DNA from: Planctomycetota bacterium
GTDB lineage: Bacteria; Planctomycetota; Planctomycetia; Pirellulales; UBA1268
Direction of reading: 5' to 3'
Assembly: GCA_016872555.1 (NCBI GenBank)
Contig: VGZO01000033.1
Coordinates: 1 to 47,251 of the forward strand
Length of the DNA: 47,251 nt
Below are positions 1 through 4,828 of this stretch, in pieces. Position numbers and translations under genes: made by a program. Under the pieces are notes generated by a model. The model had not been told where the DNA came from. It saw nothing but the letters and a program-made list of their open reading frames with translations, and searched no databases. Position 1 is the first letter of the stretch; every line of letters begins with the position of its first letter.

Positions 1-69
1 CTGGTCGTGGGTTGGTTGGCGTTGGCCGTTGGGTTGAGTGCGGTGCTCGCTGCCGCGTTCAGCGCGTAG
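1..69 (+). CDS. possible 3' end of a membrane protein (partial)
   Basis: Reading from the first base, the frame encodes 22 residues and ends at TAG (67-69). The peptide is almost entirely hydrophobic (LVVGWLALAVGLSAVLAAAF), as in a C-terminal membrane helix. That composition and the stop are the only evidence; the rest of the gene lies outside the window. It could equally be chance, since one short open stretch in GC-rich DNA proves little. Confidence 0.25.
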   Translation: MVVGWLALAVGLSAVLAAAFSA

Positions 70-150
70 GGAGCTCGTACACAGCAGAGCCTCGTTCCCG
101 TCGAGCGGGTCGGCTCGTTGAGACTCCCCGATACTCCCTCGAAAAACCCC

Positions 151-399
151 GGGACAGCCGGGACAGCGACGCAAAGCCAAGTCCCTCAAGGAGAAGCGTT
201 GAGGGGCGTCTTGGACAGCACGTGGACAGGGGCGGGACAGACCCCGGACGGTTCCCCCGGGAGGGTCTTGGTCAGCGAGGTTTGGGAACGCTCGAGGACC
301 TTCCGCGGCTCACCCCGAGGCTGTCCAGGCGCTGTCCAGCAGGCGATTCGCCCGATCACCTTGAAGGGCTTCAGCTTGGAGCCCTGTCCCGCCTGTCCC
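151..399. repeat. imperfect inverted repeat, arms 151-229 and 321-399
   Basis: The hexamer GGACAG occurs at 152, 161, 213, 224 and 235, and its complement CTGTCC at 321, 332, 384 and 393. Four of the five left copies have an exact mirror partner about a centre at position 275. Comparing 151-229 with the reverse complement of 321-399 without gaps gives 54 matches in 79 positions by hand count. Both arms can be translated into related peptides in the same relative frame (for example LDSxWT near the end of each), but stops and the lack of a full-length gene argue for decayed copies. No gene was recognised between 70 and 667. Confidence 0.6.
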
Positions 400-667
400 G
401 CACGATTTCGGGAGGGAATCTTGGGGAGGGGCAGGACTTCAGGGAGCGCGGGTTCTCGCCTCACTCGTTCCCGGTCTTCGGCGACTTGTTTCCGAGCAAG
501 TCGTGACCTATTCCGGCCGGCCTCCCGAGCACCGGCGTACTTCTGGCCTTGCTGCCCTCTCTCGACAAGTCGTTGACAAGTCGCCATTCCCGAAGGGCTA
601 GTTGGAGTGGAATGGCCCGAAGGGCGGAATGGGGCTCCGAGGCCGTAAAAGACGCTATTCCCGAAAG

Positions 668-754
668 CGGATGGGGTGGGATTCGAACCCACGAGCGACT
701 TTCGCCGCTGCCGGTTTTCAAGACCGGTGCATTCAACCGCTCTGCCACCCATCC
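668..754 (-). tRNA. tRNA-Ser (anticodon UGA)
   Basis: Read on the minus strand, the acceptor stem GGATGGG (754-748) pairs with CCCATCC (675-669), followed by discriminator G at 668. The anticodon arm is CCGGT-CTTGAAA-ACCGG with anticodon TGA. A long variable arm follows, as expected for a class II tRNA, then the T arm GTGGG-TTCGAAT-CCCAC. The length is 87 nt. The 3' CCA is not encoded (the next bases are CTT), so it must be added enzymatically. It reads UCA and, by wobble, other UCN serine codons. Confidence 0.95.
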
Positions 755-1194: not shown

Positions 1195-2160
1195 TCACGC
1201 CGACTCGTTCGCCGACTCGTTCGCCGACTCGTTCGCCGACTCGTTCGCCGACTCGTTCGCCGCGTGGACCGCGTTGCGTAGCGCCACCATCTCCCTGCCG
1301 ATCGCCGACAGCGGTCCAGACGGCACGGCCGGTACCAGCCGCCACCATGGGATCAGCCGATCCAGGTCGGCCGCGATCGCCGCGAGCTCGGCGGCCGTCC
1401 AGCGGCGCGACAAGTCGAGCCGCGCGGTATCGACTCCCGGCGGCGGCGCCTCGCCGGCCGGCGACGTGCCGAGCTGGTGCGTCGGATCGTAGGGCACGTA
1501 CTCGCGCCCCAGCCACGCCTGGAGCTCTCGGGCGACGCCCGCCGGATCGGCCGCGGCGGCGGCGAACGGGAGCAGCCATACCGTGTCGGCCGACTCTTGC
1601 GTCGCGTCGACGAGGCCGATCGTCGACAGCCGGATCGCCGCCGCTGCATCGGTGACCGTGTTGCCCAGCCGGAGCCACGAGCAGGTCACCTGGAGCGGAT
1701 CGCGGAGGACCACGACCACCGGCGATCCCGGGGCGCGCCTGCGCACGTCGGCAAGGCACGCCATGTAACGCGGCGTCTTGTCGATCAGCGGCAGCTCCTT
1801 GCGCCGGATGTAGCACTCGTCGCGAAGCAGCCGATAGCCCTCCTCGAACGAGCCACACCGCCGGTAGCGGTCGAGAAAATCCGCCCGCAGTTGCCACGAC
1901 TCGACAAGGTTCGCGCCGTACGGCTCGGGGATACCGTCGGCCGGATGCTCGGCGAGCAGCAGGCCCCCCTCGAAGGCGCTCCGCAGCCGGCCGGTGTTGC
2001 GGAGGAGATCCTTGACGAGTGTCGTGCCCCCCTTCTCGTAGCCGGCGACGATGCAGCCGAGCACGTCGCGCGGGATCGGACGATGCGCGGCCCGCGGCAT
2101 GGCCGGGCCGTCGAGGGGGCTGTTCGGCTCCGCACCGTCGGTGGTCGTGCCGTCGCTCAT
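1195..2160 (-). CDS. sulfotransferase family protein with C-terminal tandem repeat
   Basis: This 321-residue protein has the P-loop-like 5'-phosphosulfate binding segment of PAPS-dependent sulfotransferases at residues 40-48 (GYEKGGTTL). A second PAPS-binding segment with the expected Arg and Ser lies near residues 150-165 (LRDPLQVTCSWLRL). It probably transfers sulfate from PAPS to a sugar or other acceptor; the acceptor cannot be read. The C-terminus is five copies of Asn-Glu-Ser-Ala, encoded by a perfect 12-bp repeat. The gene starts 22 nt after the clpB stop, on the same strand, so it may be cotranscribed with the chaperones. Confidence 0.85.
   Translation of the reverse strand: MSDGTTTDGAEPNSPLDGPAMPRAAHRPIPRDVLGCIVAGYEKGGTTLVKDLLRNTGRLRSAFEGGLLLAEHPADGIPEPYGANLVESWQLRADFLDRYRRCGSFEEGYRLLRDECYIRRKELPLIDKTPRYMACLADVRRRAPGSPVVVVLRDPLQVTCSWLRLGNTVTDAAAAIRLSTIGLVDATQESADTVWLLPFAAAAADPAGVARELQAWLGREYVPYDPTHQLGTSPAGEAPPPGVDTARLDLSRRWTAAELAAIAADLDRLIPWWRLVPAVPSGPLSAIGREMVALRNAVHAANESANESANESANESANESA
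1199..1258. repeat. 12-bp tandem repeat, five copies, inside the sulfotransferase gene
   Basis: The unit GCCGACTCGTTC is repeated five times without change, ending with a partial copy at 1259-1262. Because the unit is a multiple of three, copy-number change keeps the reading frame, adding or removing NESA blocks at the protein C-terminus just before the stop. Confidence 0.95.
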
Positions 2161-2182: not shown

Positions 2183-4828
2183 TCAGGAGACCGGCGTGAA
2201 GGTGAACTCGTCTTGGACGAAGTCGACCCGGACGTGGCTCCCCTCGGGAAACCGACCCGAGAGCAATTCGCGCGCGAGGGGGTTTTGCAACTGCTGCTGG
2301 ATCACCCGCTTCAGCGGCCGCGCCCCGTAGACGGGATCGTAGCCGAGCCGGGCGATTTCGGCGATCGCCACCGGAGTGCACTCGAGCGCGATTCCCGCCC
2401 GGGCCGCCTGGGCCACGAGCCGCTTGACTTGAATCTCGACGATCCGCTCGATGTGACGCTCGTCGAGCGGATGGAAGACGATCGTCTCGTCGATCCGGTT
2501 GAGGAATTCGGGGAGGAACCGGGTCTGGAGGGCCTCCTTGACCGCCTGCCGGACCTCCTCCTGCGAGCCCCCCTCCTTCGTGATCTCCTGGATCACCTGA
2601 CTGCCGATGTTGCTGGTCATGACCACGATCGTGTTGGTGAAGTCGACGGTGTGGCCGAGGCTGTCGGAAAGCCGGCCGTCGTCGAGCACCTGGAGCAGCA
2701 CGTTGAACACGTCGCGGTGTGCCTTCTCGATCTCGTCGAGGAGGACGACCGAATACGGCCGGCGCCGGACCGCCTCGGTGAGGCGGCCCCCCTCCTCGTA
2801 GCCGACGTAGCCCGGCGGGGCGCCGATCAGCCGCGAGACGGTGTGCTTCTCCATGAACTCGCTCATGTCGAGGCGGACCATCGCGTTCTCGTCGTCGAAC
2901 AGCACCTCTGCCAGCGCCTTGCACAGCTCCGTCTTCCCGACGCCCGTCGGCCCGAGGAAGATGAACGACCCGATCGGCCGGTTGGGATCCTGGAGGCCGG
3001 ACCGGCTGCGCCGGACGGCGTCGCTGACCGCCTCGACCGCCTCGTCCTGGCCGACGACCCGCTGGTGGAGGCGATCCTCGAGGACGAGCAGCTTGGCACG
3101 CTCGCTCTCCACGAGGCGCGTCACCGGGATCCCGGTCCAGGCGCTGACTACCTCGGCGATCTCCTCGGGGCCGACCTCGCGGCGCAGAAGACGCTTGCCG
3201 GGCTGAGCCCCCTTCGGTCCCTTCGGTCCCTGCTCTTCCTCCTGCTCGGCCCGCGCCGCCAGGGCGCGGCGCTTCTGGTCGAGCTCGTAGAGAGTCTGGT
3301 AGAGCTCCTCGCCGACCGGCTGCCCTGAGGCCTGCCGCTCCTTGATCTGGACGCTCGCCTGCTCGAAGGCGAGCTCGGCGGCGTCGAGCTGCTGGCGCAG
3401 TTCCCCGGCGCTCCCCGCGCCGCTCTTCTCCGCCTCCCACTGCTCGCGAAGGCCGGCGAGCTTCGTCCGCAGCGTCGCCGACTCCTCCTCGATGTCGCGG
3501 AGGCGCTCCTTGGCGTGCTCCTCGGTCTCCTCGGCGAGCTGGCGGGCGGCGAGCTCGAGCTGCACGAGCCGGCGCTGGACCTCGTCGATCTCGCTCGGCA
3601 CGCTCTGCAGCTCCATCGCGATCCGGCTGGTCGCCTCGTCCATGAGGTCGATCGCCTTGTCGGGGAGGAAGCGGTCGGCGATGTAGCGGTTGGAAAGCTC
3701 GGCTGCGGCGACGAGGGCCGAATCCTTGATCTTCACTCCCTTGTGATGGGCCTCGTAGCGCGGTTTGAGGCCGCGGAGGATCGCGATCGTGTCGTCGACG
3801 CTCGGCTCGCCGACCATCACCGGCTGGAAGCGGCGCTCGAGGGCCGCGTCTTTCTCGATGTGCTTGCGGTACTCGTCGAGCGTGGTGGCACCGATGCAGC
3901 GCAGCTCGCCGCGCGACAGCGCCGGCTTGAGGAGGTTGGCGGCGTCGGCGGCCCCCTCGGCGGCGCCGGCGCCGATCATCGTGTGGAGCTCGTCGATGAA
4001 CAGGATCACGCCTCCGGCGGCGGCCTCGACCTCGCGGAGGATCGCCTTGAGCCGGTCCTCGAACTCGCCGCGGTATTTCGTGCCGGCGATCAGGGCGCCG
4101 AGATCGAGCGCGATGACGCGCTTGTTGCGCAGGCTCTCGGGCACGTCGGACTGCACGATCCGCAGCGCCAGCCCCTCGGCGATCGCCGTCTTGCCGACCC
4201 CCGGCTCGCCGATCAGCACGGGGTTGTTCTTCGTGCGCCGCGAGAGCACCTGGATCACGCGGCGGATCTCGGCGTCGCGGCCGATCACCGGATCGAGCTT
4301 GCCCTGGCTGGCGCGCTGGACGAGGTCGACGCCATATTTCTCCAGTGCCTGGAACTTCTCCTCCGGGCTCTGGTCGGTGACCCGGCTGCTGCCGCGCACG
4401 GCGCGGAGGCCGGCGAGGAGGTCTTTCTCGGCGACGCCGCCGAGCTGGAGGAGGTTCTTGGCTTTCGAGGGCGTCTTCGCGAGGGCGAGGAGGAGGTGAT
4501 CGGTGGAGACGAACTCGTCCTTCATCGTCGCCGACTCGGCGACCGCCCCCTCGAAGACCTTCATCAGCTCCTGGTCGGGCTGCGGCTGGGCGCCGCCCGA
4601 CACCTTGGGAAGGTGCGACAGCTCCGCCTCGACGATCCGCTCGAGGTGGCCACGGTCGACCCCGACCTTCTCGAGCAGCGGACGGACGATCCCCTCGCGC
4701 TCGCCGACGAGCGCCGCCAGGAGATGAACCGGCGTCGCCTGGGGATTGCCCCGGTCGGCCGCCACGTCGATGGCGCGCTGGACCGCTTCCTGGGCCTTGA
4801 TCGTGAACTTGTCGAAGCGAACGGCCAC
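2183..4828 (-). CDS. clpB: ATP-dependent disaggregase ClpB
   Basis: The protein has 881 residues, slightly longer than the usual 855-870. It opens with a Clp N domain ([19 protein letters not shown]). First AAA+ module: Walker A GEPGVGKT at 207-214 and sensor and arginine-finger regions downstream. Next is a long coiled-coil middle domain rich in Glu, Gln and Leu. The second AAA+ module has Walker A GPTGVGKT at 626-633 and a C-terminal D2-small domain. A short Gly-Pro-Lys insertion ([12 protein letters not shown]) ahead of the second module explains the extra length. ClpB works with DnaK to pull proteins out of aggregates in the cytoplasm. The gene lies 160 nt downstream of dnaK on the same strand, a functional pairing. 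Confidence 0.97.

What the first reader, a model, noticed from the sequence alone, without database searches (positions are those of the whole stretch)
151..399. Mirror-symmetric GGACAG/CTGTCC array beside tRNA-Ser
Four GGACAG copies (152, 161, 213, 224) are matched at exactly mirrored positions by CTGTCC (393, 384, 332, 321) around centre 275, with 9-11 bp spacing within pairs. The arms agree at 54 of 79 ungapped positions. One shared frame gives related peptides (12 of 27 residues identical by hand). This could be two decayed, oppositely oriented gene ends or a large symmetric recombination or protein-binding site. Position next to the 3' end of a tRNA gene, a common integration target, adds interest.
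Basis: seen in the sequence. Interest (0 to 1): 0.6.

Follow-up and report, generated by a model that had tools for sequence, protein, structure and literature searches.

The report
Paired iteron arrays beside tRNA-Ser
Next to a serine tRNA gene this planctomycete carries two facing copies of a repeat cluster that elsewhere marks where phage-like parasites start copying their DNA, so the spot is most likely the end of an inserted mobile element and not the remains of two genes.

Summary
Four GGACAG (152, 161, 213, 224) mirror four CTGTCC (393, 384, 332, 321) exactly about 275. The arms match at 54 of 79 positions against a shuffle maximum of 48, and the inverted homology runs 124-229 / 321-428.

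The arms are not gene ends. The arm is a conserved site: repeats at 0, 9, about 61, about 72 and sometimes about 83. It recurs at G000:C47, in G026 and twice in G025, and open frames break differently in each.

tRNA-Ser(TGA) is an integration hotspot in this family. Truncated 3' halves ending at the anticodon loop mark element ends, with ACAAGTC pairs 11 bp apart on both sides. The arrays lie inside such ends.

The same geometry recurs in unrelated viral contigs, at the 3' end of a primase/helicase gene in 8 of 9. Phage P4 has the same layout: att core, arm repeats, then crr, two 120-bp iteron repeats.

Best reading: a P4-crr/PICI-ori-like iteron region, probably a remnant, at the end of a tRNA-Ser-integrated element. 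The copies are inverted, unlike P4's. No primase was found beside the planctomycete arrays, and the spacer is 71% GC, so function is inferred. Integrase or excisionase binding is the main rival.

The parts
1..69 (+). 3' end of a gene, last 22 codons and stop (LVVGWLALAVGLSAVLAAAFSA*), membrane-helix-like; last visible gene of the putative element
   Evidence: Translation; contig starts at base 1
124..229 (+). Left iteron copy: GGACAG at 152 and 161 (9 bp apart), core with CCCTCAAGGAGAAGCGTTGAGGG, GGACAG at 213 and 224 (11 bp apart)
   Evidence: model R1 73.2 bits
235..240 (+). Fifth GGACAG, 11 bp after 224, no mirror partner; the third 11-bp-spaced copy as in G025 and the viral arrays
230..320 (.). 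Spacer between the two copies, 71% G+C, not AT-rich
321..428 (-). Right iteron copy, inverted: CTGTCC at 321, 332, 384, 393; outer flank 400-454 has a homologue in G055
565..582 (+). Two ACAAGTC 11 bp apart: candidate integrase arm-type sites; pairs of the same kind recur at element end B in relatives
667..722 (-). Attachment core: 3' half of tRNA-Ser up to the anticodon loop, the part duplicated as truncated copies in relatives
667..754 (-). Intact tRNA-Ser (TGA)

Best explanation
Bases about 1-666 are one end of an integrative element (satellite- or island-like) inserted into the 3' half of tRNA-Ser(TGA). The two mirror-image arrays are its iteron region, a cis-acting replication site like phage P4 crr or a PICI ori. 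In each copy a 9-bp-spaced set and an 11-bp-spaced set of GGACAG would be bound by the element's primase/helicase initiator once the element has excised and circularised. The ACAAGTC pairs would be the integrase arm sites and the tRNA 3' half the crossover core. Shown: the repeat geometry and its conservation, the element-end position, the att duplications, and the primase association of the same geometry elsewhere. Inferred: that this particular copy binds an initiator, and that the element replicates. It may be a remnant.
For: (1) The array occurs at six places in three genomes (window L and R, C47, G026, G025 twice) and keeps the 0, 9, 60/61, 71/72 spacing while the sequence between diverges; G026 has one degenerate repeat. 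(2) The tRNA-Ser 3' half is a used att site: truncated copies ending at window 722 in several genomes, with ACAAGTC 11 bp apart about 202-215 bp inside the element. The array-ACAAGTC-tRNA order is the same in the window and G026; the arrays of G025 repeat with the same neighbouring genes in tandem. (3) A pattern blind to genes hit 9 viral contigs; 8 have the array at the 3' end of a primase/helicase gene with DUF5906, VapE, DUF3987, DUF927, Prim-Pol or AAA_25. Reversed motif and shifted spacing gave 1 and 4 hits, with no match to ten reference primases. (4) P4: att core 4078-4097, arm repeats 4151-4174, crr 4291-4590 with two 120-bp repeats and iterons 9 bp then 11 bp apart, next to the alpha gene; offsets from the core resemble the window's. 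(5) In this family, G055 has an integrase, a DUF5906 primase and 9-bp-spaced GTGGGCA iterons just after it. (6) PICI origins lie 3' of the initiator gene as two iteron sets (PMC6092414).
Against: No DUF5906 or VapE primase in the own genome, and none of ten reference primases matches the DNA fetched beside the planctomycete arrays; other primase types were not searched genome-wide. The spacer is 71% GC, with no AT-rich melting stretch. P4 crr copies are direct repeats, these are inverted. The iteron sequence differs from P4's GGTGAACAG. The other planctomycete sites have a single array. The left element boundary is beyond the contig.
Confidence: 0.58

Rival explanations
1. The GGACAG arrays are arm-type binding sites of the element's tyrosine integrase or excisionase, part of attP, and have no role in replication.
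For: They lie 230-540 bp from the att core at element ends. The 11-bp phasing equals that of the ACAAGTC pairs. An integrase remnant lies in the G025 element, and a Comamonadaceae array lies just past an integrase gene.
Against: ACAAGTC pairs on both sides of the core already fit the arm role, while GGACAG arrays occur on one side only. The same geometry in viral contigs lies at primase 3' ends. In P4 the arm repeats and the crr iterons are separate features with this same order.
Confidence: 0.25
2. Ends of a small transposon or MITE, or of a recombinase-trio element, with about 109-bp terminal inverted repeats at 124-229 and 321-428.
For: Inverted homologous arms with a short interior; dispersed copies in the genome family.
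Against: Other copies are single, not paired. No target-site duplication was seen by eye. No Y1 transposase and no recombinase inside. Flank similarity differs between copies.
Confidence: 0.06
3. Transcription operator for the neighbouring element genes.
For: In G025 the array lies about 700-800 bp upstream of a GDSL-type gene in both tandem copies.
Against: In viral contigs the array is at gene 3' ends. In the window the only gene on that side ends before the array.
Confidence: 0.07
4. Two decayed, oppositely oriented gene ends.
For: A shared frame gives similar peptides.
Against: That frame has a stop in winL, C47 and G026, and the window ORFs over the arrays have no Pfam match. Repeat spacing is kept while codons are not.
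Confidence: 0.03

Closest known systems
crr (cis replication region) of satellite phage P4
   Same: Between attP arm repeats and the replication gene; two copies of about 110-120 bp; iterons in a 9-bp-spaced and an 11-bp-spaced set; similar distance from the att core
   Different: P4 copies are direct repeats with the two iteron sets on opposite strands; iteron GGTGAACAG against GGGACAG; AT-rich; alpha gene adjacent, whereas no primase is seen here
Replication origins of PICIs (3' of pri-rep, two iteron sets around an AT-rich region)
   Same: Two iteron sets at the end of an att-integrated element; ori next to the initiator gene in the viral relatives found here
   Different: Spacer in the window is GC-rich; no pri-rep gene adjacent in the assembled sequence
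Iteron arrays at primase 3' ends in IMG/VR contigs (L036, L105, L108-L110, L112-L114)
   Same: Same repeat unit GGACA and similar 9-bp set, about 61 bp, 11-bp set geometry
   Different: Three repeats at 9-bp spacing against two; primase adjacent; no tRNA in those checked
attP arm-site arrays of tyrosine integrases
   Same: Repeats phased at 11 bp at an element end
   Different: A separate ACAAGTC pair is present on both sides of the core

Membership tests
P4 crr / PICI-type iteron origin | Multiple short direct iterons with fixed spacing in two sets | tested here: met
   0, 9 and 61, 72 (83) in every copy but G026, which has one degenerate repeat
P4 crr | Two roughly 120-bp homologous copies | tested here: met
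   109 bp, 69.7% identity
P4 crr | Copies are direct repeats | tested here: not met
   Copies are inverted; P4 direct
P4 crr | Position next to attP arm repeats and core | tested here: met
   ACAAGTC pair and tRNA-Ser core; arm role of ACAAGTC is inferred
P4 crr / PICI ori | Adjacent primase/helicase initiator gene | tested here: inconclusive
   Contig ends at base 1; no DUF5906 or VapE in the own genome; other primase families not searched; met in 8 of 9 viral relatives
PICI ori | AT-rich region between iteron sets | tested here: not met
   231-320 is 71% GC
P4 crr / PICI ori | Initiator binds the iterons and drives replication | not testable with these tools
   Needs binding and replication assays
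Integrative element at a tRNA gene | Duplicated 3' tRNA segment flanks the element | tested here: inconclusive
   Met in relatives, including G026 and G025 which carry the array; no fragment found in the own genome, where the contig ends at base 1
Integrative element at a tRNA gene | Integrase gene in the element | tested here: inconclusive
   Only a C-terminal remnant in G025; not visible for the window

The most novel reading that the evidence does not exclude
A single iteron architecture (9-bp set, about 46-bp core, 11-bp set of GGACA) is shared by many unrelated primase-driven mobile elements across phyla. Planctomycete elements in tRNA-Ser carry it as a primase-free cis site, hitch-hiking on another element's initiator in trans, so that primase-less islands could replicate as satellites of primase-encoding elements.
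Probability: 0.15. Interest if true: 0.7.

Novelty: new variant of a known kind. Interest (0 to 1): 0.45.

Why it matters
If right, it shows P4/PICI-style replication sites and att anatomy in Pirellulales, and gives a searchable geometry that found primase-linked origin-like sites in viral contigs without using genes. A primase-free copy beside att would make trans-replication of islands directly testable.

Tried and rejected
RAYT/REP: the GGAC-like motif suggested it, but no Y1_Tnp in the own genome. Simple protein-coding GQ repeats: several GGGACAGNNGGGACAG hits in relatives look like coding repeats (L016, L019, L020), unlike the four-site array. Coding sequence over the arrays: no Pfam hit, frames broken. 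Known RNA: only the tRNA. Plasmid collection: the 20 matches listed were the tRNA only. Hits of the blastn search in long coding genes (L009, L010) set aside as chance. A PHROGs call failed on coordinates and two paper look-ups on short terms. A second G055 match (E 0.005) is too weak to use.

Full report
What is there. They exceed chance: 9 GGACAG/CTGTCC in bases 1-660 against a mean of 0.56 in shuffles, and 54 inverted identities in 79 against a shuffle maximum of 48. BLASTN extends the inverted homology to 124-229 / 321-428, 109 bp at 69.7%, E 9e-7. A fifth GGACAG at 235 has no partner.

The unit. The arm also occurs in the own genome at C47:29096-29174, in G026 and twice in G025, relatives in the same family. 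Offsets of GGACA are 0, 9, 61, 72 (83) in the window and C47, 0, 9, 60, 71, 82 in G025, and 0, 9, 72 in G026, where the third repeat has changed. A sequence model of five copies finds nothing else in 72 family genomes except a weak G055 match. A related pattern found no convincing case in 397 genomes of the class (its one extra hit, G330, reads as a coding-type repeat). The 'shared peptide' frame contains stops in three copies, so the constraint is on DNA sites, not on a protein.

The place. tRNA-Ser(TGA) is at 667-754, minus strand. In this family its 3' flank differs in almost every genome, and truncated 3' halves ending at or near the anticodon loop (window 722) occur in several, twice in G050, G053 and G106. 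Inside the fragment-side end, two ACAAGTC 11 bp apart sit at about 202 and 213 bp in several of these loci. The window has the pair at 565 and 576. In G026 the order array, ACAAGTC, att segment repeats. In G025 two tandem units carry the array with the same GDSL, small and ResIII-helicase genes, and one also a GACAAG pair. The array is thus part of an integrated element's end. The window's contig begins at base 1, so the element itself is not visible.

What it resembles. A pattern for the geometry, blind to genes, hit 9 viral contigs. The ninth, L111, is a simple tandem repeat. Control patterns gave 1 and 4 hits with no match to the reference primases. In bacterial genomes the geometry appears next to a VapE gene (Rhizobiales) and just past an integrase (Comamonadaceae), as well as in loci where no primase was seen. 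Phage P4's record shows att core, arm repeats, then crr: two 120-bp repeats with iterons 9 and 11 bp apart, next to the primase gene alpha. Distances from the core are of the same order as the window's: P4 arms 54-77 bp and crr 194-493 bp from the core's end; here about 85-102 bp and 239-543 bp from the tRNA 3' end. A relative, G055, has integrase, DUF5906 primase and 9-bp-spaced GTGGGCA iterons in one contig. PICI origins are described as two iteron sets 3' of the initiator gene flanking an AT-rich region (PMC6092414).

Mechanism. Inferred: after excision by an integrase acting at the tRNA core and the ACAAGTC arms, an initiator primase/helicase would bind the GGACAG sets and open the DNA. 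Not shown: a cognate primase (none of two families in the own genome; none next to the arrays) or an AT-rich melting stretch (the spacer is 71% GC). The copy may be a remnant, may use an initiator in trans, or may serve integrase/excisionase binding, the main rival.

Verdict. Real, non-random and mobile-element-derived; works like a P4-crr/PICI-ori iteron region by anatomy. Full membership is not claimed, because the copies are inverted, no AT-rich stretch is present and no initiator gene was seen.

Noticed in passing
L034, L067, L068, L069, L072, L073/L074: tRNA-Ser(TGA) is a serial integration hotspot across this Pirellulales family, with up to two truncated 3' halves stacked beside the intact gene and units of about 2-20 kb between them; in the loci checked with one integrase query only a remnant was found.
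   Followed up: partly
window 1198-1262: 12-bp tandem repeats (cgactcgttcgc) at the C-terminal end of the minus-strand ORF 1195-2160, giving repeated ESAN.
   Followed up: no
L119 10086-10259 (G055:C143): GTGGGCA iterons, 9 bp apart, in alternating orientation right after a DUF5906 primase, on a contig that also has a 446-aa integrase ORF: a candidate satellite.
   Followed up: partly
G000:C101:1168, G025:C6:1016, G026:C537:1000, G050:C13:115361: A family of 382-383 aa tyrosine recombinases with a longer catalytic region, three of the four within about 1.2 kb of contig coordinate 1; possibly integron integrases.
   Followed up: no
L099 and L102 (Calothrix PCC 7103), L091 and L098 (Nostocales): GGACA arrays of the same geometry in cyanobacteria with no recognised primase in the DNA held; L102 also has a mirrored TGTCC set nearby.
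   Followed up: partly
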